NCBI RefSeq assembly: GCF_011290485.1
Contig: NZ_CP048029.1
Coordinates: 1,471,155 to 1,535,154 of the forward strand
Direction: 5' to 3'
DNA from: Caldichromatium japonicum
GTDB lineage: Bacteria; Pseudomonadota; Gammaproteobacteria; Chromatiales; Chromatiaceae
Length of the DNA stretch: 64,000 nt
Part shown: in pieces, positions 720 through 62,182 of the stretch
Layout: every line of letters begins with the position of its first letter
How positions within the stretch are numbered: the stretch's first letter is position 1
The notes under the pieces: generated by a model
Databases searched by the model: none
The model's input: the letters and a program-made list of their open reading frames with translations, nothing else
Told to the model about the DNA's origin: nothing
Translations under genes and position numbers: made by a program

Positions 720-816
720 GGCTTACTCGTTGGTGTTCTGTCGAACGCTAAACAATTTCGCTAGATTCATGAGCTAATCAGATTCAATCATGATCACTCA
801 TGACTCACCCCCTTTC

Positions 817-1796
817 TTATTGATAAGAAACACATGCTTTTGAAATTGAGTGAGCTGTCCAGATGTCGTGGGCATGGAAAGACGAGACATGAGATTGCTG
901 TCGTTTGCGGCGCGCGAAGGGGCCCAAGGGAAAGGGGGGTGGGCGCAAAGTGGGTGAGAAGCGGGCGCTGTTGGCGGAGCAGGACGCCCAGATACGCAAG
1001 CTCATGTGCGACGGGACACCGGATGAGCTGAAGCTGCCGTTTGCGCTGTGGAGCCGGCAGGCGGTGCGGCAGTTGATCCTCGACCGTTTTGGCATCGAGC
1101 TCAGGCCGCAGGGGGAGGGCAAGTACATGGCGCGCTGGGGATTGACGCCCCAGAAACCGATTCGGCGCGCCTATGAGCAAAGCCCGCCGGCGGGCAAGAC
1201 GTGGCTTGAGGAGATCTACCCGGACATTGCCCGGCGCGCCAAGGCCGAGGGCGCCGAAATCCACTGGGGCGATGAAACGGGGCTGCGCTCGGACGAGGTG
1301 CGCGGGCGCTCTTATGCGCCGGCGATCAAGACGTCCGAGATTCGCGTCACGCACCGTCGCGAAGGCCTGTCGGTGATCTCGACGCTGACCAACCGCGGAA
1401 AGGTGCGTCGGAAGGCGTTCGCGGGGGCGATGAACGCCGACATCCTGATCGACTTCATGAAGCGGCTCGTCAAGGACGCCAGGGGCAAGAAGATCTTCCT
1501 CATCCTCGACAACCTGCGCGTGCATCACACCAAGCCAGTCAAGGCGTGGCTGGCTGCATGCGCCAATCAAATCGAGGCCTCCTCCCTCCCCTATAGCCCG
1601 GCACTGAACCCCAACGAGATGCTCAAGGCCACCATCACCGCGCAGGCGCCCTCCCGCGCCAAGGGCGATCTGAAGAAGGCGACCGTCAGCCACCTGCGCC
1701 GCCTTCTCAATTCCCCCCAACGCATCATGCGCTACTTCCAGCATCCCAAGCTCCATGATGCCGCGTAATACAAGTTCATTGGTTTCGGATCAATAA
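817..1796 (+). mobile_element. IS630-family element, copy A
   Basis: The ends form an imperfect inverted repeat: left TTATTGATAAGAAAC, right GTTTCGGATCAATAA. A TA dinucleotide sits at each end (818-819 and 1794-1795), as expected for IS630/Tc1-type insertion at TA. The element has inserted into a TnpB reading frame, whose 3' end resumes at 1788. It carries one transposase gene, shortened near its 5' end. Confidence 0.85.
905..1768 (+). pseudogene. IS630 transposase with N-terminal deletion
   Basis: 287 residues holding the whole DDE catalytic domain: HWGDETGLRSDE (first Asp), FLILDNLRVHH (second Asp) and YSPALNPNE (Glu). The DNA-binding N-terminus is lost. Compared with the copy at 61435, a 120-bp segment between two GCGCGAAG repeats is missing, fusing the initial codons to the linker. 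The copy at 30120 has the identical deletion. Without its helix-turn-helix domain the protein is probably inactive or needs help in trans. Confidence 0.85.
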
Positions 1797-13522: not shown

Positions 13523-14461
13523 TATTAATCCGAAACCAATGAACTTATATTACGCGGCATCATGGAGCTTGGGATGCTGGAAGTAGCGCATGATGCGTTG
13601 GGGGGAATTGAGAAGGCGGCGCAGGTGGCTGACGGTCGCCTTCTTCAGATCGCCCTTGGCGCGGGAGGGCGCCTGCGCGGTGATGGTGGCCTTGAGCATC
13701 TCGTTGGGGTTCAGTGCCGGGCTATAGGGGAGGGAGGAGGCCTCGATTTGATTGGCGCATGCAGCCAGCCAGGCCTTGACTGGCTTGGTGTGATGCACGC
13801 GCAGGTTGTCGAGGATGAGGAAGATCTTCTTGCCCCTGGCGTCCTTGACGAGCCGCTTCATGAAGTCGATCAGGATGTCGGCGTTCATCGCCCCCGCGAA
13901 CGCCTTCCAAGGCACCTTGCCGCGGTTGGTCAGCGTCGAGATCACCGACAGGCCTTCGCGACGGTGCGTGACGCGAATCTCGGGCGTCTTGATCGCCGGC
14001 GCATAAGAGCGCCCGCGCACCTCGTCCGAGCGCAGCCCCGTTTCATCGCCCCAGTGGATTTCGGCGCCCTCGGCCTTGGCGCGCTGGGCAATGTCCGGGT
14101 AGATCTCCTCAAGCCACGTCTTGCCCGCCGGCGGGCTTTGCTCATAGGCGCGCCGAATCGGTTTCTGGGGCGTCAATCCCCAGCGCGCCATGTACTTGCC
14201 CTCCCCCTGCGGCCTGAGCTCGATGCCAAAACGGTCGAGGATCAACTGCCACAGCGCAAACGGCAGCTTCAGCTGATCCGGTGTCCCGTCGCACATGAGC
14301 TTGCGTATCTGGGCGTCCTGCTCCGCCAACAGCGCCCGCTTCTCACCCACCTTTCCTTGAGCCCTTGGGCCCCTTCGCGCCCATAGCCTTTGCAGATGTC
14401 GAACACCCCTGCGCCCAACAATCCCCTCTGCGCGCCTATCGCTTCATACGTCCAGCCACGC
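13522..14461 (-). mobile_element. IS630-family element, copy B (one end lost)
   Basis: The 3' terminal repeat (TTATTAATCCGAAACC on the plus strand) is intact at 13522 inside modB. The other end is missing: homology breaks near 14461 and passes straight into nifV. A deletion starting inside this IS therefore joined nifV to modB, removing modA and the rest of both genes. Confidence 0.85.
13550..14450 (-). pseudogene. IS630 transposase, copy B
   Basis: The catalytic domain is complete (HWGDETGLRSDE, FLILDNLRVHH, YSPALNPNE). The first codons are cut off by the nifV junction. The helix-turn-helix part (ERWVRSG side) is out of frame with the catalytic part. The 18 bp for SRQAVR is deleted, as in the left-edge copy, so those two form a sublineage. 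Confidence 0.8.
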
Positions 14462-30119: not shown

Positions 30120-31097
30120 TAGTGATCCGAAACCAATGAACTTGTATTACGCGGTATCATGGAGCTTGGGATGCTGGAAGTAGCGCATGATGCGTTGGGG
30201 GGAATTGAGAAGGCGGCGCAGGTGGCTGACGGTCGCCTTCTTCAGATCGCCCTTGGCGCGGGAGGGCGCCTGCGCGGTGATGGTGGCCTTGAGCATCTCG
30301 TTGGGGTTCAGTGCCGGGCTATAGGGGAGGGAGGAGGCCTCGATTTGATTGGCGCATGCAGCCAGCCACGCCTTGACTGGCTTGGTGTGATGCACGCGCA
30401 GGTTGTCGAGGATGAGGAAGATCTTCTTGCCCCTGGCGTCCTTGACGAGCCGCTTCATGAAGTCGATCAGGATGTCGGCGTTCATCGCCCCCGCGAACGC
30501 CTTCCGACGCACCTTGCCGCGGTTGGTCAGCGTCGAGATCACCGACAGGCCTTCGCGACGGTGCGTGACGCGAATCTCGGACGTCTTGATCGCCGGCGCA
30601 TAAGAGCGCCCGCGCACCTCGTCCGAGCGCAGCCCCGTTTCATCGCCCCAGTGGATTTCGGCGCCCTCGGCCTTGGCGCGCCGGGCAATGTCCGGGTAGG
30701 TCTCCTCAAGCCACGTCTTGCCCGCCGGCGGGCTTTGCTCATAGGCGCGCCGAATCGGTTTCTGGGGCGTCAATCCCCAGCGCGCCATGTACTTGCCCTC
30801 CCCCTGCGGCCTGAGCTCGATGCCAAAACAGCCGAGGATCAACTGCCGCACCGCCTGCCGGCTCCACAGCGCAAACGGCAGCTTCAGCTCATCCGGTGTC
30901 CCGTCGCACATGAGCTTGCGTATCTGGGCGTCCTGCTCCGCCAACAGCGCCCGCTTCTCACCCACCTTGCGCCCACCCCCCTTGTCCTTGGGCCCCTTCG
31001 CGCGCCGCAAACGACAGCAATCTCATGTCTCGTCTTTACCATGCCCACGACATCAGGACAGCTCACTCAATTTCAAAAGCATGTGTTTCTTATCAAG
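30120..31097 (-). mobile_element. IS630-family element, copy D
   Basis: Both terminal repeats are recognisable: GTGATCCGAAACC on the left, GTTTCTTATCAA on the right. TA lies at the left junction (30120-30121), but GA follows the right end, so one flank has mutated or recombined. The enclosed transposase is on the minus strand. Confidence 0.8.
30147..31010 (-). pseudogene. IS630 transposase, copy D
   Basis: 287 residues, with the same 120-bp deletion between GCGCGAAG repeats as copy A, removing the helix-turn-helix domain. The catalytic Asp, Asp, Glu motifs are present. Small differences from copy A (for example LGCFGIEL, LEETYPD, KLHDTA) show the two have diverged a little since they shared that deletion. 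Confidence 0.85.
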
Positions 31098-31138
31098 AAT
31101 TGATTGCACATGACTGTGAGGCGCTTGGCCAAGCCGGT

Positions 31139-51769: not shown

Positions 51770-52402
51770 CTAACCCTCTGCAGGATCTGTGGCGCGTTGC
51801 GCCTTGATGGCCTGTGCCAGGTCTGCGAGCGCTGCCAGCTCATCGCGATCGGCAGGCAGACCGTCCTGGTCCTTACTGAGAGGTTGGACGGGCGTTGGCT
51901 CAACCCAGCGGTCTGCCTGGAGCAGCTGCTCAAGCTCGGCAGCCAGCTCAGCGAGTACATAATGCGGACGCTCGATGAGACGCAGCAACGGCAACCTTAC
52001 CCGTTTGCATAGGGGTTCCAGTTCATCCGGCGGCAATGTCTTGCGCCAGCGGGGAGGGGAGATGCGCTTGATGGCCGCACGGACAACGAGGGTATCGCGC
52101 TTGCAGATCAGATAATCAAAACGCTGGCGCTCCAGGCGCGCGAGTATGCGTGCCTGCTCGCGCCGGCTCAGTCCAGGCGCAGGCGCCAGCACCTCGCTCG
52201 CCCGCACCCGCACGAAGACGCGATAGCCATCGCCCAGCACGTGTTCAAGCATCGCGAGCAGGATGCGCTCGCGAGGCGTCAGCCAATGTGGGTCAAAGAC
52301 ATAAGGCTCGCGCCTGCGCCAGCCAAGGGCTTGCGCCAGATCGAACACCAGGGCCAGAACGACCAGCGCCCCCAATCCCAGCAGGGCATACAAGTGCGCC
52401 AT
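51770..52402 (-). CDS. DUF2726-like membrane-anchored protein
   Basis: 210 residues. An N-terminal helix (LYALLGLGALVVLALVFDLA) precedes LTPRERILLAMLEHVLGDGY, FVRVRASEVLAP and DYLICKRDTLVVRAAI, resembling the nuclease-like DUF2726 fold. No clear catalytic set was identified. It begins one base beyond the stop of the small membrane protein upstream, so the two form an operon. Function unknown. Confidence 0.6.
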   Translation of the reverse strand: MAHLYALLGLGALVVLALVFDLAQALGWRRREPYVFDPHWLTPRERILLAMLEHVLGDGYRVFVRVRASEVLAPAPGLSRREQARILARLERQRFDYLICKRDTLVVRAAIKRISPPRWRKTLPPDELEPLCKRVRLPLLRLIERPHYVLAELAAELEQLLQADRWVEPTPVQPLSKDQDGLPADRDELAALADLAQAIKAQRATDPAEG

Positions 52403-52403
52403 C

Positions 52404-52859
52404 TCAACGGGCCACTGGGCTCAAGGGTGGCGGTGGCGGCAGCTCGATCCCGTTTTGGTGATACCAGGCGCGATCGAGCGCCCAATTGACCGTTTGCACA
52501 TCCGGCTCATTCATCATCATTTCGACCGCATGGGCCTCAACCGACCGAAAACGCCTCTCGGCGTCCTGGACCTCAGGCGCATTGTCCGGCTTGCCGGTGA
52601 GTGCAGGCTCGATGCGGTCCAAGAACGGGCGCAAGGGGCGCTCCAGGGCATGCGGGCTGCTCAGGGTGACAGTGCCGTTGAGAAAGACCAGCGCACGGAA
52701 ACGATAGGGATAGCTGGCGAGCATCGGGTCCTGTTCCAGGATCTCATTGAGTCGCCAGATGCGCGGGCGCAGTTCGTCATTGTGCCAGCTTAGGGTGACG
52801 ATTAGAAAGACCAGAAAGGCAGCCGAGGCGATGATAGCGCTGAGTGTTAGACGGTCCAT
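52404..52859 (-). CDS. Small membrane-anchored hypothetical protein
   Basis: 151 residues from MDRLTLSAIIASAAFLVFLIV at 52859. One N-terminal helix, then a hydrophilic domain with no recognised motif (WRLNEILEQDPMLASYPYR, MMMNEPDVQTVNWALDRAW) and a Pro-rich end. It is paired with the DUF2726-like gene and divergent from the large coiled-coil gene. Confidence 0.6.
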   Translation of the reverse strand: MDRLTLSAIIASAAFLVFLIVTLSWHNDELRPRIWRLNEILEQDPMLASYPYRFRALVFLNGTVTLSSPHALERPLRPFLDRIEPALTGKPDNAPEVQDAERRFRSVEAHAVEMMMNEPDVQTVNWALDRAWYHQNGIELPPPPPLSPVAR

Positions 52860-53179
52860 GGGAGGGATGTTGCGACCTTTTTTGCCAGTTGGGTTGAGCC
52901 TAAGGGAGGCGATATCCGCCTTGCCAGAATACTCGAAACATCCATCGCACCGACGCCTCTGCCTGGGCATTGCCTACAGGCAGGTGTGAAAGCACTATGA
53001 CACTGGCGAACCCCGCTATCCAAGCTGCATGGATCTGGTTGCGGCTGAGGCTGCAATGGCGGGCCGGCTTGCGCCGGAACGGTCGGAACGATCCGGCAGG
53101 CATGTTTCGAGGTCCCTTATTGAAACAAAAGCTGGGGCCAATGGCCAAATGCGAAGCGGGCGGTAAGTCCGGTTAAACT

Positions 53180-55594
53180 ATGTCCGGCCTGGCAACGGAC
53201 CCACCTGCGCTTGCCAAACAAGATCCGAGATCCCCAAAACCGATTGAAGAACCCATCGCTATGACCCTAGACCAAGGGGTAGGCCGTAGTGCCCCAAAAC
53301 CGCGCCTGTGGGACCAGCTGCGCCTGCGGCCCTATGGTGACAGGATGCTCACCCCTGCGGTACGGGTGTGGCTTGCCTTTGCCTGGGCGATCATCCTGCT
53401 GATGGCGACCATCGAGGGCCTGGTCTGGGGGCTGGTGGGCTCGACCATCGTCCCGCAAGAGAGCGCCTGGCTAAAACCATTCATTGGCACCCTGCTATTT
53501 GCGGTTATCTTTGGGGTGGTCTGGGTGATCGACGCCTCGCTCATCATGTCCGAGCGTCCGGTAGTGCGCGCACGCCGCTGGGACCCAGGGGCAAATCAAG
53601 GACTCGGCGCCTTGCTGCGTTGGTTGTTTGGTTTCATCGCGCGCCTGGCGATCGTGGCCCTCTCGCTCTACGTTACCGCACCCTTCCTCGGCAAGTTGAT
53701 CCGCGCCGATGACATCGAGGTCTATCACCAACAGCAGGTGGAGCGCTATTTCGCCGAGCGCGAGACCCAGCTCAAGGCCCAGATCGCGGCGCGCACCGCC
53801 CAGATCGACGAGACCTATCGTGCGCGCAGCGAGCCGATCAAAGGCGAGATCGAGCAGCTCTCAGCGGGCCTTGTCGCCGAGCGCGCGCGCCGTGCTGCGA
53901 TCGAGTCCGAATATGCCCCGGAGATCGAGGTCTTGCGCCGTGATCTGGCCGCCGCCCAAGCGAAGGTCGGCGATGAGATCCTCGGGCGCAATGGGCGCCC
54001 TTCGGGGCGCGGGCCGGAGGCGCGCAAATGGGAGGCCAATGCTGCTTTGCTCGCCGAGCAGCTCAATGCCAAGCAGTCCGAGCGCGATGCGCGCGTGTCT
54101 GAGATCGATCGGCGGATTCAGGAGTGGGAACAGCGGCTGGCCGAGCAGACCGAGCGCCTGCAACGTCTGACCCAGGAATACGAGCAGCGGGTCAGCGCGA
54201 TCGCCGATGAGCTCAAGGCCCAGCAGCCCCCGCCCAATCCGCCGCGTCTGACCTTTGCCGCCCGTTCCAAGATCTTGCAAGCGATCCAGGAAAGCCCAGA
54301 GGAACAAAGTGTCCCCCATTTCGAAAGGGTCGAGGGCTTTTCGCAGGCACTGCTCGGGGTGCTGTTTTTGTCGCTGATCGCACTCAAGCTCTTCGAGCCA
54401 ACCGCGGTGCGCGCCTATTTCAGCGAGACCCTGCAGATGCAATATTGCAAATATCTCGAGGGTGGGCTCGACGACATCCCTGGCTTTGCGCCGCCGGCAA
54501 ATCCGGGCCAAAGGCTCAATCCGGTCGAGTTTGCCCGCCTGTGGCTCGCCTATGAAAAGGACCCGGCGGCCTTTTTTGCCGAACGCCAGGCGATCATTGA
54601 GGTACGCGAGCCCCTGTTGCGTTATCTTGCCGAACGCGAGCTCGAGCGCGATCGGATTGCCTTGCGACGCGCCAACCTCGATGATGAGTTCAGCTTCATC
54701 CGCGAACGGCGCCGCTGCGAGCTGGTGGCGCTCGAACGCGAGCTGAAATTACGCACCGATGCCCTCCAGTCCCAGCTTGCCCTCGAGACCCGCACCCTCA
54801 AGGATCAGAGGCGGGTGCAACTGGCCATCGAGCTGCAAAAGGCGCGTCAAGATTGGAACCTGCGCCAGTTGCATGAAGAGGAACAACTGCGTCTGGAACG
54901 CGAACGACTTGCGCAGGAGCATGAACGGGCGATGGCCGAGCTGCGACTGCGCGAGCAAGAGCTCTTCGAGGCACAGGCCCGCGCCGAGTCGGAGCTCCAA
55001 CAGGCCGAGCTCGCCGAGCGCTTAGAACATGAGCGCAAGCGCTTTGCCCTCCAGCAGGAACAACAGCGCGAGGAACGCAAGGCCCGCATCCAGGCGGTGC
55101 GCGAAGAGATCAGCCGCCTGCTCGCCCTCGAGGCCAAACAGCGCGCCGACTACCAGACCCTGCGCGAGGCCGAACGCCGGCTCGAGGACGAGGCGGGGAT
55201 GTTGCGCGCCAGCATAGCGGTCTCTGAGGTCGAGCTGGCCGAGCTAAGACAGCGAATCGCCGCGCTGAAGACGGCCCTTGTTCATCAAGCCGTCAAGACA
55301 GACGAGTCCTTAGAGGTCCGACGTAGCCTCTGGTCGCGGTTGGCCCAGACCCCGGATGACGCCCGCGACATCGAACGGGAGTTGCGAGGCGCGGAGAAGG
55401 CCGAGCGCAGCGAGCTTGAACAGCTCGCTAAGCTTAAAGGCGCCCTTGAGGGGCTTGAACGACGCCTGACAGCCAAATCAGACGAACGGCGCGAGGCCGA
55501 ACAGCGTCTTCGTGACACCCTCAACCGCATCCAGTTCCATGAGGACAGCCTCAAGACACTACTTGAACCCAAGGGTCTTTTGGTCGAGGATTAA
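53180..55594 (+). CDS. Large membrane coiled-coil protein, DUF4407-like
   Basis: 804 residues. Three to four N-terminal helices (residues about 60-175, e.g. VWLAFAWAIILLMATIEGLV) match the DUF4407 layout. A cytoplasmic or periplasmic coiled coil follows (residues about 185-350), another helix (FSQALLGVLFLSLIALKLFEP), then a very long charged coiled coil (residues about 470-790). It could be a membrane-anchored scaffold. It is followed by the FHA and kinase genes, suggesting a phosphorylation-linked role. No enzyme motif. Confidence 0.7.
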   Translation: MSGLATDPPALAKQDPRSPKPIEEPIAMTLDQGVGRSAPKPRLWDQLRLRPYGDRMLTPAVRVWLAFAWAIILLMATIEGLVWGLVGSTIVPQESAWLKPFIGTLLFAVIFGVVWVIDASLIMSERPVVRARRWDPGANQGLGALLRWLFGFIARLAIVALSLYVTAPFLGKLIRADDIEVYHQQQVERYFAERETQLKAQIAARTAQIDETYRARSEPIKGEIEQLSAGLVAERARRAAIESEYAPEIEVLRRDLAAAQAKVGDEILGRNGRPSGRGPEARKWEANAALLAEQLNAKQSERDARVSEIDRRIQEWEQRLAEQTERLQRLTQEYEQRVSAIADELKAQQPPPNPPRLTFAARSKILQAIQESPEEQSVPHFERVEGFSQALLGVLFLSLIALKLFEPTAVRAYFSETLQMQYCKYLEGGLDDIPGFAPPANPGQRLNPVEFARLWLAYEKDPAAFFAERQAIIEVREPLLRYLAERELERDRIALRRANLDDEFSFIRERRRCELVALERELKLRTDALQSQLALETRTLKDQRRVQLAIELQKARQDWNLRQLHEEEQLRLERERLAQEHERAMAELRLREQELFEAQARAESELQQAELAERLEHERKRFALQQEQQREERKARIQAVREEISRLLALEAKQRADYQTLREAERRLEDEAGMLRASIAVSEVELAELRQRIAALKTALVHQAVKTDESLEVRRSLWSRLAQTPDDARDIERELRGAEKAERSELEQLAKLKGALEGLERRLTAKSDERREAEQRLRDTLNRIQFHEDSLKTLLEPKGLLVED

Positions 55595-55702
55595 GCGCAG
55601 AGATATCTTTGAGCCATGGATCTGAGGTGTGCAGCCTGTATCCTGCCCTCATTGTCTTGCCTCATGGCCGCCTGCCCCCGCGGGCGTGACCCCGAACATA
55701 CC

Positions 55703-56602
55703 TCAGCGCCGTCCCCTTTGCCCAACCAAGGCAGCGCGGATCTCAAGCAAAATCCCGGGATAGGCGGCCTTAAACCCCTGCCAGCAACGCGCCTGCCCCT
55801 CTTCGCTGAGATCCGGTCCGGCATGACCCACCAGTCTTTGCTCCCAGCGGACGGGATCGAGGCGCGTACTGAGCTCCGCTATGACTGCATCGATCAGGGC
55901 ATCCGATACAAATTTGCCAGGCACAAGCGCCTGGCTGCATCCTGGTTCCGACGGCTGCGCCATGATCTGGGTCGAGCCTTTAGCAGAAGGGGGTGGTGGG
56001 GAGAGAACCTGGGTGCGTTGCGCGAGGACTGCGGTTGGGTCGCCGGACAGCGGGGGGTCTGTGGGCCAATCCAGGCAGACCGTTTTGTCCTCAGCGGGTA
56101 TAGTCTTGGGCCCCGGTTGGGTGCAGCCGGTACCTTCAAGCCTTTGCGTAACCTCGCCCATAACTGCAGTCTGGGACTCAGTCAGCACCTGGGTCTGATC
56201 GGCGCATACCACACGCTGGGCCGAGGTGACCAGGGCTGTCGCCTCTGGCCCAACCGCCGGCTGGGGCGGGTCGATCCCCTCCAGACCGCTGTCCAAGCCG
56301 ATCCAGATGTCATAGGCCCCGATCGTCAGCACGTCTCTGTCTTTGAGCGCCACCGGCTGGCCTAAGGGCAGCGGCCTGTCGTTGAGCAGCGTCCCATTGC
56401 GGCCGAGATCGGTCACCCAGAGCCTCCCCTCCGCCTCATAGATGCGCGCATGCCGGTGCGAGATGACCCGCTCCGTATCCTCAAGACAAAGATCGCAGCT
56501 TAAGGCGCGCCCGATCTCAATGCCCGTCTCGTTGACCACAAACGGCAAGGCGCGAGGGCGCACCGCCCCAGCGCGATGGATGACGCAGACCATAATCTCC
56601 AT
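55703..56602 (-). CDS. FHA-domain protein
   Basis: 299 residues. The N-terminal FHA domain (residues about 20-100) shows IGRALSCDLCLEDTERVISHRHARIY in pieces and DLGRNGTLLNDRPL, with the Arg, Ser, His and Asn that bind phosphothreonine. A low-complexity Thr/Gln-rich stretch follows (repeated T-Q-V/T-A-V), then a helical C-terminus. The Thr-rich linker could be the target of the divergent kinase, whose start is 93 bp away. Confidence 0.8.
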   Translation of the reverse strand: MEIMVCVIHRAGAVRPRALPFVVNETGIEIGRALSCDLCLEDTERVISHRHARIYEAEGRLWVTDLGRNGTLLNDRPLPLGQPVALKDRDVLTIGAYDIWIGLDSGLEGIDPPQPAVGPEATALVTSAQRVVCADQTQVLTESQTAVMGEVTQRLEGTGCTQPGPKTIPAEDKTVCLDWPTDPPLSGDPTAVLAQRTQVLSPPPPSAKGSTQIMAQPSEPGCSQALVPGKFVSDALIDAVIAELSTRLDPVRWEQRLVGHAGPDLSEEGQARCWQGFKAAYPGILLEIRAALVGQRGRR

Positions 56603-56695
56603 ACCGGATGCAGACCTCTCTTTTATGTGTCGGCGTGGGAATCGGTTATATCATCCAGCCGATCCCTGGAATTAGTTGAAGACCTTGAAGATAGC

Positions 56696-59374
56696 GTGAA
56701 CATCCCTGGCTATACCATCCTCCGCGAACTCGGACAGGGCGGCATGGCGACGGTCTATCTGTCCCGCCAGGATCGTCTCGGGCGCGAGGTGGCGCTCAAG
56801 GTGATGAAGCCGCAGGCCCTCGCAGGCGATGAGTTTATCGCCCGTTTCATCAAGGAAGGCCAGATCATCGCCCGTCTCCAGCACCCGCAGATCATCACCA
56901 TCTATGACCTGGACGTTGCAGACGGCCTGTATTACTTCTCAATGGAATATCTGCCGGGTGGGACCCTGCTCGATGAGATCAAGCAGGGGTTGCCGGTCGG
57001 GCGCGCCCTCTCCATCGCGCACAAGGTCGCCGAGGCGCTCGCCGTCGCCCATGCCCGCGGGGTGATCCATCGCGATGTCAAGCCGCAGAATATCCTGTTT
57101 CGCGCCGACGGCACCCCGGTCCTGACCGATTTCGGGATTGCCCGCGCCATCACCCCCGGCCCTGAGTCGGTCCAGTTCACGCGGATCGGGATGGTGATCG
57201 GCAGCCCGCAGTACATGAGCCCAGAGCAATGCCTGGGCCAGCCCCTCGATCCGCGCTCCGACCTCTATAGTCTTGGGGTGGTGATCTATCAGATGCTCAC
57301 CCAGCACCTGCCCTATGAGGCGGCTGATCCCGTCAGCCTGGCGATGAAACACTGCCAGGACCCCATCCCGCGCCTGCCTGAGCCGCTGGTTGCCTATCAA
57401 CCCCTGATCGAAAAGCTGCTCGCCAAGCGCCCAGAGGATCGCTTCACCAGCGCCGGTCAGCTCATCCGCGCCCTGGACGCCCTGGGGTCCAAACTCGGAG
57501 ACTCCTATGACGCCACGCGCTTGCTTCGGCCCGCTACCCCAGCGGTCTTAGAGCCGACGCAAGGCCCAGCGGCCCTTCCCTCCCCCGAGATCCGGCGCCC
57601 CCGACCCTGGCCGTGGGGACTGGCGCTGGTCCTCTTGGGCTTGGTCGCGGTCATCTATCTCGGCGTACAGCGGTCGCTGCCGCCTGCACCTCCCCAGCCC
57701 GAGTTTGCCATCAAGCTCCCCCCTGCCCCGACCGATCGCCCCCAGACCGCCACCCAATACGAGGCGCTTGTTCTGGATCATCTGCGCCGCGGTCAGAGCG
57801 AGCAGGCCCAAGAGATCCTCCGCCTGGCGCTTGCTACCACACCCGATGATCAACGCCTTTTGGCGCTGCGCAAACATCTCGACGATCAGAACCGCCTTGC
57901 CCAGCGGCTCGCCGATGCCCGCCGCGCCCTGCTCGAAAACCGCCTCGACGACGCCGCTCAAGGGGTGGAGGCCGGACTTGCCCTCGACCCCGAGCATGCC
58001 GACCTTTTGGCACTGCGTACCGAGATCCAGGAGCGCTTTGCCGCCCGCCGGCGACTCGCCGCCGAGCGTCTGCTCGAACAGGCGCAGTCTGCCCAGGCAA
58101 GGGGCGATCTGGCGAGCGCCGAACGTCTAGCCCGCGAGGGGCTTGCCCAGGTTCAGGACCATCCAGGTCTTTTGGCCCTGTTGGCTGCGATCGATCAGAT
58201 CCGCGCGCGCCAATCCCAAACCGAACAGCTCTATGACCAGGCGATCGCCGCTCATGACCTCGGGGATCTTACGGGGTCATTCAGGCTGATCGCTGAGGGC
58301 CTTAAGTTTAGCCCAGGGCATGCTGGGCTACTCGCCCTACGCGAACGGCTGATCAATGCTCAGATCCAGGCGGCGCGTGCACATCTTAAAGAGACCGCCG
58401 AACGCTATGCCGCGGAGGCCGCCGAGCTCCTCAAGCGCTACCGGCTGGATACAGCCGAAAGCCAGATCGAGCGCCTGCGGGCGATCGCCCCAGATCACCC
58501 CCAGCTCGCCGGCCTGAGCGAGACCCTCAAACAACATCGCGCCTTCCTGCCCGAGATGGTCGCGATCCCAGGCGGTTGCTTCATGATGGGCAGTCCGGAG
58601 AACGAGCCCGGTCATGAGCCCGACGAGGGGCTCCATCGCGTCTGCATCGAGCCGTTCAAGCTGGCGGTGCGCGAGGTGAGCGTCGGTGAGTTCAAGCGTT
58701 TCGTCGCAGCGACCGGTTATCGCACCGACGCCGAGCGCGGGCGCGGCGACGGGCCAGGCTGCGAGAGCCTCGACCGCACCGATCGCCAAACCCCTTGGGG
58801 CATAAAGCCCTGGGCCCATTGGCGCGAGCCCAATCGCCAACAGGCACTTGCTGACCGCCAGGCGGTGACCTGTGTGAGCTGGAACGATGCCCTGGCCTAT
58901 ATCGCTTGGCTCAAGACCGAGACCACTTTACCCTTTCGCTTGCCGACCGAGGCCGAGTGGGAATATGCCGCGCGCGCCGACACCTCAGGCGCACGGTTCT
59001 GGGAAACAGATCCCGCTGCTAACCCCTGTCTCTATGTCAATTCCGCTGATCGCGGTCAAGGCTGGGATGCCGGTTTTGCGTGTGACGACGGTCACGAATG
59101 GGTCGCGCCGGTCGGTAGCCTCAAGCCCAATCCTTGGGGACTGTTCGACATCCTCGGCAACGTCTGGGAATGGACCTGTTCGGAGTACGAGACCAACTAT
59201 CGGGGCGCTGAGCAGATCTGCGCCCCCCCCGAGATCGATGCCCCGCGGGTCATGCGCGGCGGGGGCTGGAACAGCGCCCCGAATCTGGTGCGCGCGGCCT
59301 ATCGCAACCGCAATTTTCCCGAAACGCGCTATAGCTTTGTCGGCTTTCGCCTGGCGCTCGATAATGCCCAATAG
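56696..59374 (+). CDS. Ser/Thr protein kinase with C-terminal formylglycine-enzyme-like domain
   Basis: 892 residues from GTG at 56696 (NIPGYTILRELGQGG). Kinase domain, residues about 5-270: GQGGMATVY, K35, HRDVKPQN (D127), DFG at 145-147. A membrane helix (WGLALVLLGLVAVIYLGV) near residue 305 is followed by a helical repeat region and, from about residue 620, an FGE-sulfatase/SUMF1-like domain (MVAIPGGCFMMGS, PTEAEWEYAARA, GNVWEWTCSEY, MRGGGWNS). The topology puts the FGE-like domain in the periplasm. The GTG was chosen because it precedes the kinase fold; a TTG seven codons earlier is possible. Confidence 0.88.
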   Translation: MNIPGYTILRELGQGGMATVYLSRQDRLGREVALKVMKPQALAGDEFIARFIKEGQIIARLQHPQIITIYDLDVADGLYYFSMEYLPGGTLLDEIKQGLPVGRALSIAHKVAEALAVAHARGVIHRDVKPQNILFRADGTPVLTDFGIARAITPGPESVQFTRIGMVIGSPQYMSPEQCLGQPLDPRSDLYSLGVVIYQMLTQHLPYEAADPVSLAMKHCQDPIPRLPEPLVAYQPLIEKLLAKRPEDRFTSAGQLIRALDALGSKLGDSYDATRLLRPATPAVLEPTQGPAALPSPEIRRPRPWPWGLALVLLGLVAVIYLGVQRSLPPAPPQPEFAIKLPPAPTDRPQTATQYEALVLDHLRRGQSEQAQEILRLALATTPDDQRLLALRKHLDDQNRLAQRLADARRALLENRLDDAAQGVEAGLALDPEHADLLALRTEIQERFAARRRLAAERLLEQAQSAQARGDLASAERLAREGLAQVQDHPGLLALLAAIDQIRARQSQTEQLYDQAIAAHDLGDLTGSFRLIAEGLKFSPGHAGLLALRERLINAQIQAARAHLKETAERYAAEAAELLKRYRLDTAESQIERLRAIAPDHPQLAGLSETLKQHRAFLPEMVAIPGGCFMMGSPENEPGHEPDEGLHRVCIEPFKLAVREVSVGEFKRFVAATGYRTDAERGRGDGPGCESLDRTDRQTPWGIKPWAHWREPNRQQALADRQAVTCVSWNDALAYIAWLKTETTLPFRLPTEAEWEYAARADTSGARFWETDPAANPCLYVNSADRGQGWDAGFACDDGHEWVAPVGSLKPNPWGLFDILGNVWEWTCSEYETNYRGAEQICAPPEIDAPRVMRGGGWNSAPNLVRAAYRNRNFPETRYSFVGFRLALDNAQ

Positions 59375-60259
59375 CTAGACCTGGATCAGTATCTCAGCCC
59401 CCTGCGGCAAGACGTCGACCTGGGCATGGGAGGCTAGAAGCTGATCGGTCTCCATCACTGCCAACACCGCCTCCAGAATCTCCGGATCATTGCGCGCGAT
59501 CGCATTGAGCGCTGCACCTACAATCGCTGGGCGGCTTGCTGCGGCCTCGGCAAGCTTCCGTGAGACCTTATAAGCGGTCTCGCTCTTAATGAGCCCCACC
59601 CGATTTTCGCCGTACTGTTTCATGGCGCTGGTGACCTGTACCAGACGCTTGACCACCTTCTCGGTGATGTTTTCGACCATTTGTTGATCAGTGAACGAGA
59701 CCTTGCGGATATAGACCGATCCCAGGGTATAATCCCATTGCTCCGACAGGGGCGAGACCGTAGTTCGTACTCGGCAGCTGAGTTGGTGCCGGTCCTCGAG
59801 CATCTGGTCCATCTTCAGGTTGCTGAGGGTCAAGATGGTCGAGCTGGCGACATTGGCCTGGAGCGAGGCATCGGGATTGGCATTATTGAAGAGATAGGCG
59901 ACGGGGTCGCTGACCCGCATCTCATACCAGATGCCAACCCCCATCAGCGTACCCTCCTCGGAATTGACCGTCAGGTTGCGCAGATAATGTTGACGCAGGC
60001 AGATCGAAACCCGGTAGGTCTTCCCAAATAAAGGCAAAAGCAATGCTTTAAGGCCGAAATGACTTAAGGGAAAACGCAAGCCCGGCTCGTCCACTGTCCC
60101 TATGACCTTACCAAACAGAGTGAAGACATGGGCCTCGCGCTCGCGCACGATGGTATAGAGCCCGCACGCCCGGGCAATGAAGAGCAGCAGCGGCAAATAG
60201 ACGAGACCCAATACAAAACCGAGGACTGTGCCAAGGATGGACTCTAGGTCAAGTAACAT
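59375..60259 (-). CDS. SPFH/band 7 family protein
   Basis: 294 residues. One N-terminal helix (LGFVLGLVYLPLLLFIARA) then an SPFH domain (VREREAHVFTLFGKV to VKRLVQVTSAMKQ). Such proteins form membrane-associated oligomeric rings that organise protease or stress complexes. It is tail-to-tail with the kinase gene (stop codons adjoin). It lies downstream of a second, broken SPFH gene on the same strand. Confidence 0.8.
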   Translation of the reverse strand: MLLDLESILGTVLGFVLGLVYLPLLLFIARACGLYTIVREREAHVFTLFGKVIGTVDEPGLRFPLSHFGLKALLLPLFGKTYRVSICLRQHYLRNLTVNSEEGTLMGVGIWYEMRVSDPVAYLFNNANPDASLQANVASSTILTLSNLKMDQMLEDRHQLSCRVRTTVSPLSEQWDYTLGSVYIRKVSFTDQQMVENITEKVVKRLVQVTSAMKQYGENRVGLIKSETAYKVSRKLAEAAASRPAIVGAALNAIARNDPEILEAVLAVMETDQLLASHAQVDVLPQGAEILIQV

Positions 60260-60364
60260 GAAGCCTCCTCCCTTAGGGAGAGATTACGCGCCACTTGTGA
60301 TCCCGCACACGGAAGGCGGCAACTCGGACCGATCTCTATAAGAACAGGCAATCAAAGCCCTCAC

Positions 60365-60402
60365 CTTAAACCCATTAGCCAGGCTTAAACCCATTAGCCA
60401 GG
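60365..60402. repeat. 19-bp perfect tandem duplication
   Basis: CTTAAACCCATTAGCCAGG occurs twice, head to tail. It includes the stop codon of the broken SPFH gene, so the second copy is outside the frame. It is one of seven short tandem duplications in the window. Confidence 0.9.
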
Positions 60403-61422
60403 GAGGTAGATGCCTTGGGGTTCTATCAAGGGTTTGATGAGCTCTGGATGATACGGACAGCGCGCGCGAGCAAAGGCAACCTCTGGTTGGGCAGATAGCT
60501 CTTGAGCGCCGTCGGCCCGCCTTGGTCCTTGATCTGGGCGAGTGTCGCTGCCAGCTCATTCAAGGGCGCAACCTCGGCCTGGGCTTGTTACGCGCGATCT
60601 CGACCGCCCGCTCGCTCATGGTGATCTGCTGCTCAGCCTCAGCACGTGCGGTTGAGATGTCAGCGGCGATCTGGTTGCGGGTTGTATTGATCGCCGAGAG
60701 CGCGCGATCGACCTCGGATGGCGGGTCGATTTGGGTGATTAAGGCGGCATCCAGTTCGATCCCATAACGCGCCGCGGTAGAACGGCATTGTTCCTCCATG
60801 TAGGCATTCATCAGTAGGGGCAGGTTCTTGCGTAGGTCGTTGATCGAGACGCCTTCAGAAAGCTCAGGACCACTGCTAAAAGCTCAGGACCAATGCTATT
60901 GGTATCAGGACCGCTGCCCAGGGTCTGAGCCTTGGGATCAACAAAATTAGCAATGCGTTCGCGCAAGACGGAGATGAAATACCCCATGACATGCTCCAAG
61001 GGGCTATCGACCCCGAGGAGATAGGCATAGAGGTTATTTTCTGCAACGCGAAAGCGAATCTGGCCGCTGACCCCGATGGTGAGGTTATCCTTGGTCACCG
61101 CCTCGATCGTGCTCTGCGTCTTGGTCGGGTCCCAGGTAAGGTCGATCGCCTGAGTCACAACCCGCACCTTGTGCACCTCCTGCCAGGGCCACTTGAAATA
61201 AGGCCCACCTGGACCGATGACCCGCAAGCCAGGATAGCGATAACTGGCCCTTTCATCGCCCTCCACCGCTGGGTCCTCAACCATCAGATGCCCTAGGCGC
61301 TGGGCGCGTCCCAAGGTCGTGATGGCCGCGCGCTCATCCGGCTTGACGGTATAGATGCCACCTTTGAAAAGCCGGTAGATCACGAAGATCAGGAGACCGA
61401 GCAGAAAGGCAGTGACCTGCAT
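60394..61422 (-). pseudogene. Second SPFH/band 7 protein, multiply frameshifted
   Basis: The start MQVTAFLLGLLIFVIYRLF and SPFH core (KPDERAAITTLGRAQRLG, TKDNLTIGVSGQIRFRV) are intact. A 20-bp tandem duplication with one mismatch (60859-60898) then shifts the frame. The next part (MNAYMEEQCRSTAARYGI to SERAVEIARNK) shifts again by one missing base near 60585, and a third shift precedes PELIKPLIEPQGIYLPG. IS630 copy E lies 12 bp upstream of the start codon and probably removed the promoter. Confidence 0.88.
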
Positions 61423-61434
61423 GACGCACCCCGC

Positions 61435-62182
61435 TTATTGATTTAAGAAACACATGCTTTTGAAATTGAGTGAGCTGTCCTGATGTCGTGGGCATGGAAA
61501 GACGAGACATGAGATCGCTGTTGTTTGCGGCGCGCGAAGAGCGGCGGCGTCAGGTGGTGAGTTTGCGGCGGCGTGGCTGGACGTATAAAGCGATAGGCGC
61601 GCAGAGGGGATTGTTGGGCGCAGGGGTGTTCGACATCTGCAAAGGCTATGGGCGCGAAGGGGCCCAAGGGCTCAAGGACGAGAAGCGGGCGCTCTTATGC
61701 GCCGGCGATCAAGACGCCCGAGATTCGCGTCACGCACCGTCGCGAAGGCCTGTCGGTGATCTCGACGCTGACCAACCGCGGCAAGGTGCGTCGGAAGGTG
61801 TTCGCGGGGGCGATGAACGCCGACATCCTGATCGACTTCATGAAGCGGCTCGTCAAGGACGCCAGGGGCAAGAAGATCTTCCTCATCCTCGACAACCTGC
61901 GCGTGCATCACACCAAGCCGGTCAAGGCGTGGCTGGCTGCATGCGCCAATCAAATCGAGGCCTCCTCCCTCCCCCCCTACAGCCCAGCACTGAACCCCAA
62001 CGAGATGCTCAAGGCCACCATCACCGCGCAGGCGCCCTCCCGCACCAAGGGCGATCTGAAGAAGGCGACCGTCAGCCACCTGCGCCGCCTTCTCAATTCC
62101 CCCCAACGCATCATGCGCTACTTCCAGCATCCCAAGCTCCATGATGCCGCGTAATACAAGTTCGTTGGTTTCGGATCAATAA
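61435..62182 (+). mobile_element. IS630-family element, copy E (internally deleted)
   Basis: Both ends are present with flanking TA (61436-61437 and 62180-62181): left TTATTGATTTAAGAAAC, right GTTTCGGATCAATAA. It keeps the full 5' part, including the helix-turn-helix, but has lost 341 bp between two GCGGGCGCT repeats. Confidence 0.85.
61500..62154 (+). pseudogene. IS630 transposase, copy E
   Basis: The N-terminus is the most complete in the window: REERRRQVVSLRRRGWTYKA, FDICKGYGREGAQG. It runs into the deletion at EKRALL and then shifts frame. The C-terminal half continues out of frame as GRSYAPAIKTPEIRV to the end. The first catalytic Asp (HWGDETG) is inside the deletion. Here the motif reads SSLPPYSPALNPNE, while copies A, B and D lack one Pro codon. 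Confidence 0.85.

What the first reader, a model, noticed from the sequence alone, without database searches (positions are those of the whole stretch)
51770..61422. Possible membrane signalling module: DUF4407-like scaffold, FHA protein, kinase-FGE receptor, SPFH proteins
A long membrane coiled-coil protein, an FHA protein with a Thr-rich linker, and a membrane kinase with a periplasmic FGE-like sensor are contiguous, with two SPFH proteins and two small membrane proteins. A PP2C phosphatase lies 9-14 kb away. The set suggests sensing on one side of the membrane and a phospho-Thr-dependent scaffold on the other. I know no described system with this composition.
Basis: inference. Interest (0 to 1): 0.7.

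Follow-up and report, generated by a model that had tools for sequence, protein, structure and literature searches.

The report
Leftover type VI secretion signalling pair
The kinase and the phosphothreonine-reading protein next to each other here look like the control switch of a toxin-injection machine (type VI secretion) whose machine parts were not found in this bacterium, and they sit beside other membrane genes rather than clearly forming a new conserved system with them.

Summary
The genes exist, but the 'module' looks composite. (1) The FHA protein and the kinase-TM-TPR-FGE receptor resemble a head-to-head TagH/PpkA pair, the threonine-phosphorylation arm of type VI secretion (T6SS): the closest kinase relatives outside the genus mostly lie in T6SS clusters. 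Three T6SS core families searched were not found in this genome or three congeners, so the pair appears orphaned. The FHA protein lacks the T6SS C-terminal domain and has a linker of T-x-x-hydrophobic sites (8 against 2.8 in shuffles). (2) The 804-aa 'scaffold' is a Chromatiaceae protein; beside it lie the two small membrane genes in 12 and 10 of 30 relatives, but FHA and kinase in 1 of 30 and SPFH in 1 of 30. It resembles DUF4407 in layout without scoring as a member. (3) One SPFH gene is intact; the second is broken by two frameshifts. A parallel keeps the idea alive: true DUF4407 proteins on Rhodococcus plasmids are fused to kinases beside PP2C and FHA genes.

The parts
55703..56602 (-). 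FHA protein (299 aa): N-terminal FHA domain of TagH/Fha type, linker with eight T-x-x-hydrophobic sites, eroded C-terminus
   Evidence: Pfam FHA; best NCBIfam TIGR03354 TagH, 84 bits against a cut-off of 120.25; TagH profile 96 bits for residues 1-108, 4-7 bits for a C-terminal remnant; linker test
56576..59374 (+). Ser/Thr kinase - TM - TPR region - FGE-like domain (932 aa as an ORF; the G073 relative starts about 40 codons later), PpkA-like
   Evidence: Pfam; 53-63% identity over about 500-580 aa to kinases of five T6SS-bearing genomes; tree
53180..55594 (+). 804-aa membrane coiled-coil protein (DUF4407-like layout): predicted helices 59-90, 93-123, 142-174 and 384-404 of membrane type, helical hairpin 176-348, long helices 462-711 and 726-795
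   Evidence: ORF; alignment of 29 sequences, window plus 28 of the 30 relatives; AlphaFold2 model pLDDT 79.8, pTM 0.43; membrane assignment by reading
52404..52970 (-). Small membrane protein; relatives begin at the inner Met (52859); beside the scaffold in 12 of 30 relatives
51770..52402 (-). DUF2726 protein with an N-terminal hydrophobic segment; beside the scaffold in 10 of 30 relatives
   Evidence: PF10881 E 2.6e-15
59375..60259 (-). Intact SPFH/Band 7 protein (SPFH1, 294 aa)
   Evidence: PF01145; dN 0.14, dS 1.20 against G103
60560..61422 (-). Second SPFH gene (SPFH2), broken by two frameshifts into 203-aa and 83-aa pieces; its tail continues in another frame downstream
   Evidence: intact in L032 and L195
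42671..43438 (-). PP2C phosphatase; possible but unproven partner
   Evidence: PF13672 E 8e-13; 30% identity to the PP2C of a T6SS cluster

Best explanation
The stretch is three neighbouring gene groups, not one system. The signalling core is an orphaned TagH-PpkA pair from a type VI secretion threonine-phosphorylation pathway. Likely working (all steps inferred): an envelope signal reaches the periplasmic TPR-FGE part of the kinase, which dimerises and autophosphorylates; it phosphorylates threonines in T-x-x-hydrophobic sites, in its own juxtamembrane segment (DATRLL) and in the FHA linker; FHA domains read these sites in trans, so the FHA protein multimerises under the membrane; a PP2C may reverse it. 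None of three T6SS core families searched was found and the T6SS-type C-terminal domain of the FHA protein is gone, so the output is something other than T6SS assembly, or nothing. The 804-aa coiled-coil protein with its two small membrane neighbours is a separate Chromatiaceae envelope unit, and the SPFH pair a third group that is decaying here.
For: FHA and kinase genes lie adjacent and head to head in G018, G101 and G087 (L151, L153, L154; the FHA gene of L153 placed) beside T6SS genes (T6SS families shown by Pfam for L151, for the others by BLAST clusters with it). Closest kinase relatives outside the genus (G018, G031, G101, G087, G070; 74-78% identity in the kinase domain): 4 of 5 have T6SS genes in the fetched stretch, 5 of 5 genomes have VipB/TssC. 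The three kinases of the genus (G000, G073, G026) group with them (support 93/100, just below treekit's star). VipB not found in 4 of 4 sampled genomes of the genus including this one; IcmF_C and TssK not found in the same 4, found in 2 of 2 positive controls. FHA best curated family is TagH. Linker: 8 sites, 21 of 20000 shuffles reach it. dN below dS between this genome and G073: kinase domain 0.14/0.78, FGE 0.23/1.09, FHA domain 0.34/1.18. Scaffold loci lack FHA and kinase in 29 of 30 and 45 of 45, including L193, the closest by sequence (82%).
Against: Kinases matching the query's TM-TPR region also occur away from T6SS genes: none was seen in 7 of 13 fetched loci; and 2 of the 6 loci with T6SS genes (L155, L156) have only about 30% identical kinase domains and fall in the outgroup. 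Leaving those two out, 4 of 11 loci are T6SS-linked, so the claim rests on the closest clade. 10 of 16 inner branches of the tree are open, and no starred set holds the window row. The FHA match is below the TagH cut-off. G073 has the same scaffold-FHA-kinase order. Scaffold and kinase co-occur in genomes more than expected. dS near 1 is close to saturation. Phosphorylation, topology and output were not tested.
Confidence: 0.72

Rival explanations
1. One functional system: the kinase senses in the periplasm, phosphorylates the coiled-coil scaffold, and the FHA protein docks on it, with SPFH proteins organising the membrane domain.
For: Same order scaffold-FHA-kinase in G073; SPFH pair beside the scaffold in G103 and in A. 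palmeri L195; genome co-occurrence scaffold-SPFH2 26 of 31 against 10.2 expected and scaffold-kinase 12 of 15 against 4.0 expected; DUF4407-kinase/PP2C/FHA cassettes on two Rhodococcus plasmids.
Against: Adjacency is missing in nearly all relatives (FHA and kinase 1 of 30 and 0 of 45; SPFH 1 of 30 and 1 of 45); SPFH2 is broken here; the co-occurrence is not corrected for descent; the scaffold does not reach DUF4407 thresholds.
Confidence: 0.12
2. The FHA-kinase pair is a decaying remnant without function.
For: Three T6SS core families not found; FHA C-terminal domain lost in both G000 and G073; neighbouring SPFH2 is broken; no FHA match in congeners G026 and G103.
Against: Both ORFs open, kinase HRD/DFG and FHA GR/S-H/NGT residues present by reading (motifs recalled), dN/dS well below 1, linker sites enriched in this copy.
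Confidence: 0.2
3. The FGE part is the variable protein of a diversity-generating retroelement.
For: PDB hits of the FGE part include a 'non-specific serine/threonine protein kinase' (5nxl) and 'Treponema denticola variable protein 1' (2y3c); their link to such retroelements is recalled.
Against: Search of the own genome with the last 175 bases gives itself; the next hit is 38 bases at 79%, E 0.04. No reverse transcriptase search was made.
Confidence: 0.02

Closest known systems
T6SS threonine phosphorylation pathway (PpkA-Fha/TagH-PppA with periplasmic input TagR or RtkS)
   Same: Membrane Ser/Thr kinase and FHA protein with head-to-head genes; closest kinase homologues mostly in T6SS clusters
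   Different: Three T6SS core families not found; FHA C-terminal T6SS domain lost and linker sites enriched; a periplasmic FGE domain is part of the kinase; PP2C not in the cluster
DUF4407 (PF14362) membrane proteins
   Same: Scaffold: three helices of membrane type, a long helical hairpin with a Gly-rich G-x-G-P tip, then a fourth
   Different: No Pfam match; hhalign probability 2-12%; long C-terminal coiled coil; found only in Chromatiaceae-type records in the searches made
DUF4407-kinase / PP2C / FHA / RodA-transpeptidase / NYN cassettes of two Rhodococcus plasmids
   Same: DUF4407 with kinase, PP2C and FHA in one gene cluster
   Different: Kinase fused to DUF4407, cell-wall enzymes present; no SPFH or FGE in the scanned or annotated genes
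HflK/HflC and other SPFH pairs
   Same: Two SPFH genes side by side
   Different: NCBIfam HflK score 27.7 bits against a cut-off of 159.4; second gene broken here

Membership tests
T6SS threonine phosphorylation pathway | PpkA-type membrane kinase related to T6SS-encoded kinases | tested here: met
   53-63% identity over about 500-580 aa; grouping with mostly T6SS-linked kinases, support 93/100
T6SS threonine phosphorylation pathway | TagH/Fha protein with FHA domain and T6SS_FHA_C domain | tested here: not met
   FHA half TagH-like, 84 bits, below the TIGR03354 cut-off of 120.25; C-terminal domain absent from the Pfam scan, 4-7 bit remnant
T6SS threonine phosphorylation pathway | T6SS structural genes in the genome | tested here: not met
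   PF05943, PF06744, PF05936 not found in G000; other T6SS families not searched
T6SS threonine phosphorylation pathway | PppA phosphatase partner | tested here: inconclusive
   PP2C in the window, 30% identical to the T6SS-cluster PP2C, about 13 kb from the kinase
T6SS threonine phosphorylation pathway | Kinase phosphorylates Thr of the FHA protein or a T6SS subunit | not testable with these tools
   Needs phosphoproteomics
DUF4407 (PF14362), for the scaffold | Score above Pfam gathering cut-off | tested here: not met
   No match
DUF4407 (PF14362), for the scaffold | Profile-profile homology | tested here: inconclusive
   hhalign probability 2-12%; local score 31.5 against 15.9 and 16.7 for reversed controls, global alignment co-linear
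SPFH/Band 7 | PF01145 domain | tested here: met
   SPFH1 E 1.2e-13; SPFH2 pieces 3.4e-9 and 2.6e-7
Anti-phage defence systems (PADLOC) | System-specific models beyond a generic kinase or phosphatase domain | tested here: not met
   Of the 8 proteins scanned only the kinase (25 of 33 families shown, matches in the kinase part) and the PP2C matched

The most novel reading that the evidence does not exclude
A T6SS threonine-phosphorylation switch has been recruited, after loss of the secretion machine, to a new target: the FHA protein dropped its T6SS-type C-terminal domain, multiplied pThr-binding sites, and with the kinase now controls a DUF4407-like periplasm-spanning coiled-coil protein, converging on the DUF4407-kinase-PP2C-FHA arrangement of Rhodococcus plasmids.
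Probability: 0.12. Interest if true: 0.65.

Novelty: new variant of a known kind. Interest (0 to 1): 0.4.

Why it matters
It turns a 'new system' into a concrete candidate for a regulatory arm that outlived its secretion machine, testable in cultured purple sulfur bacteria. It places a kinase with an FGE-like domain beside T6SS genes in this family, and it points to DUF4407 as a possible receptor or scaffold domain in Ser/Thr kinase signalling.

Tried and rejected
DUF4407 membership by Pfam and hhalign: not met or weak; the set A3 has five rows of which two come from two records of the same plasmid. Diversity-generating retroelement: no template repeat found. Known defence system: only kinase and phosphatase models. 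Fold search of the scaffold in the PDB: 0 matches at E 0.001 or better; the 50 listed are long helical and other proteins with query TM-scores up to 0.15. Scaffold on plasmids and in viral contigs: none. Literature: no held paper for PpkA with formylglycine, TagR with sulfatase and PpkA, TagR with FGE, or at least 4 of NYN/PP2C/FHA/RodA/conflict system. A search for orphan or T6SS-independent PpkA/Fha/TagH gave 49 papers, of which I saw the listing only apart from those read for other reasons, and Chromatiaceae with T6SS gave 8, listing only; so I do not claim that orphan pairs are unreported. TagR being FGE-like is recalled, not shown here. The narrow motif T-[QEDA]-[VI]-[LMI] (5 against 0.05) was chosen after seeing the linker and is not relied on. 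Six TagH linkers of other genomes had 1, 1, 2, 2, 2 and 4 T-x-x-hydrophobic sites (the 4, in L155, is reached by 147 of 5000 shuffles), and G073 has 2 in a 63-aa linker (858 of 5000), so the excess is clearest in the window copy.

Rows dropped: one search used 15 of the 20 kinase-positive genomes (E below 1e-9; G010, G042, G044, G068, G099 dropped), with handle lists typed from the tables. One search used 28 of 30 relatives (L039, where the ORF picker missed the scaffold frame, and L059, a contig-end piece, left out). In some searches several loci end soon after the scaffold (for example L041, L059, L060; L203, L214, L218, L220, L236, L237), so absences there say little.
Full report
What is there. 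The window lies in a 2.99-Mb single-contig genome (G000). Its GTDB genus (g1) includes G026, whose contig C44 of 155,883 bases has the length of the Allochromatium warmingii DSM 173 contig; I did not name the window's own species. Genes in the region: DUF2726 protein, a small membrane protein, the 804-aa coiled-coil protein, the FHA protein, the kinase-TM-TPR-FGE protein, SPFH1, and a second SPFH gene in pieces. Against intact relatives (L032, L195) the second SPFH gene has two frame-changing differences, so only one SPFH protein is likely made.

The scaffold's neighbourhood. The 804-aa protein occurs in 31 of 116 family genomes including this one and in 45 loci of the GTDB contigs. Of those 45 records, 3 are titled only Chromatiaceae bacterium, 2 only Gammaproteobacteria bacterium, and the rest bear genus names that I recall as Chromatiaceae. 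No relative was found on plasmids or in viral contigs. In the 30 relative loci of the first set the small membrane gene lies beside it in 12, the DUF2726 gene in 10, FHA and kinase in 1 (G073), the SPFH pair in 1 (G103). In the second set (45 loci, overlapping with the first) the counts are 17, 14, 0 and 1. Some loci are cut short by contig ends. The closest relative by sequence, L193 (82% identity), has neither FHA, kinase nor SPFH in its stretch. Homologues of the small protein occur in 62 of 116 genomes, many of them distant paralogues; those with 43% identity or more occur in 21 genomes, 20 of which have the scaffold, while 11 of the 31 scaffold genomes have none that close (counted by eye). 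Scaffold plus small protein is therefore the best-supported unit. Within the genus the orders scaffold-FHA-kinase (G073) and scaffold-SPFH1-SPFH2 (G103, L195) suggest that the full order in the window may be old there, with parts lost elsewhere; this is inference.

What the FHA-kinase pair is. The FHA protein's best curated family is TagH (TIGR03354; 84 bits, below the cut-off of 120.25). A profile of six TagH-like proteins from the fetched loci matches its first 108 residues with 96 bits and a short C-terminal remnant with 4-7 bits; the G073 copy ends at 167 aa. The kinase aligns over about 500-580 aa at 53-63% identity with kinases of G031, G018, G101, G087 and G070, while kinase-domain hits elsewhere in its own genome are 29-36% identical. 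Of 13 loci found with the TM-TPR region whose surroundings I fetched, 6 (L151-L156) hold T6SS genes in the same stretch and 7 (L157-L160, L170, L269, L270) show none. Two of the six, L155 and L156, have kinase domains only about 30% identical and fall in the outgroup, so within the kinase's own clade it is 4 of 11. In L151, Pfam shows TssM (IcmF), TssL (DotU/OmpA), TssK (VasE), TagH with T6SS_FHA_C, and a PP2C, with TagH and kinase head to head; for the other loci the T6SS genes were named by BLAST clusters with these. In the kinase-domain tree the three kinases of the genus (G000, G073, G026) group with G018, G031, G101, G087, G070 and G015 at support 93/100; the order inside is unresolved and 10 of 16 inner branches are open. 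G026's kinase lies away from its scaffold and no FHA match was found in G026. VipB/TssC is found in 40 of 116 genomes but not in G000, G026, G073 or G103; IcmF_C and TssK are also not found in these four and are found in both positive controls. In the review PMC10482370 (passages read) PpkA autophosphorylates and phosphorylates Fha, PppA reverses it, and TagQRST or RtkS give periplasmic input; in PMC3953482 (passages) the FHA domain binds phosphothreonine of TssL in Agrobacterium; in PMC6082577 (passages) phosphorylated Fha is said to multimerise.

How it may work. The FHA linker (residues 105-228) holds eight T-x-x-[LIVM] sites against a mean of 2.8 in shuffles (21 of 20000 reach 8); six TagH linkers of other genomes have 1-4, the G073 linker 2. 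FHA domains bind pThr with selectivity at position +3 (recalled), so the linker reads as a ladder of docking sites for other FHA domains; the kinase has a similar site about 30 residues before its membrane helix (DATRLL). The FGE part has no cysteine in its last 45 residues, where formylglycine-generating enzymes carry their catalytic pair (sequence reading; pair recalled), so it is more likely a binding domain than an enzyme. dN is below dS in the kinase, FGE and FHA domains between G000 and G073, though dS near 1 is close to saturation, and the regions outside these domains change fast (linker and TPR of the kinase 0.41/1.27; FHA linker 0.84/1.65). Signal, substrates and output are unknown.

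The DUF4407 question. The scaffold gives no Pfam match. Profile comparison with one to five DUF4407-type proteins gives probability 2-12%. In some searches the only aligned part is the tip of the hairpin (GRNGRPSGRGPEARKWE in the window against GKTGKRGIGPIYRKLE in a DUF4407 protein), and the local score is 31.5 against 15.9 and 16.7 for reversed controls, with a co-linear global alignment. The model shows three helices of membrane length, a long helical hairpin, a fourth, and a long coiled coil (sidedness inferred from Arg-rich loops), without a PDB match at E 0.001. I think distant kinship likely but not shown.

A parallel. While gathering DUF4407 sequences I found on Rhodococcus plasmids pLW2 and pFiD188 a cassette NYN, DUF4407 (one or two genes, one fused to a Ser/Thr kinase domain), PP2C, FHA, RodA-transpeptidase fusion. 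The two copies are diverged (37% identity in the DUF4407-kinase protein). A third Rhodococcus plasmid with a DUF4407 match (L285) gave only a kinase-part hit nearby, and the two viral contigs with DUF4407 matches (L283, L284) gave no PP2C, FHA, NYN or RodA hit; the neighbourhoods of the proteobacterial DUF4407 genes (L171, L172) were not studied. DUF4407 appears in 3 papers of the library (listing only).

Co-occurrence. Over the 116 genomes, scaffold and SPFH2 co-occur in 26 of 31 scaffold genomes (10.2 expected), scaffold and kinase in 12 of 15 kinase genomes (4.0 expected), scaffold and VipB in 13 of 31 (10.7 expected), kinase and VipB in 10 of 15 (5.2 expected). None is corrected for shared descent, which could explain them.

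Noticed in passing
L280:9776-18809 and L281:10108-19476 (Rhodococcus plasmids pLW2, pFiD188): Cassette of NYN, DUF4407 fused to a Ser/Thr kinase, PP2C, FHA and a RodA-transpeptidase fusion, shared by two diverged plasmids. Suggests DUF4407 is a membrane receptor or scaffold domain in kinase signalling.
   Followed up: partly
L268:1569-5190 (G026:C20): Another PpkA-like kinase-FGE gene in a congener where three T6SS core families were not found, next to a Sel1-repeat gene whose homologues neighbour the kinase in other loci.
   Followed up: partly
window 794-1756, 13562-14386, 30159-31103, 61470-62154: Stretches with the same sequence start in the ORF lists, probably copies of one insertion element (the forward ORFs at 61470-62154 read like an IS630-type transposase), one just upstream of the broken SPFH gene.
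   Followed up: no
L153:1488-3074: An FHA-SLT transglycosylase fusion gene near a T6SS-linked kinase in G101.
   Followed up: no
window 51770-52402: The DUF2726 protein seems to lack the acidic and His residues of the family's putative nuclease motif (motif recalled), so it may be a non-catalytic membrane-anchored version.
   Followed up: no
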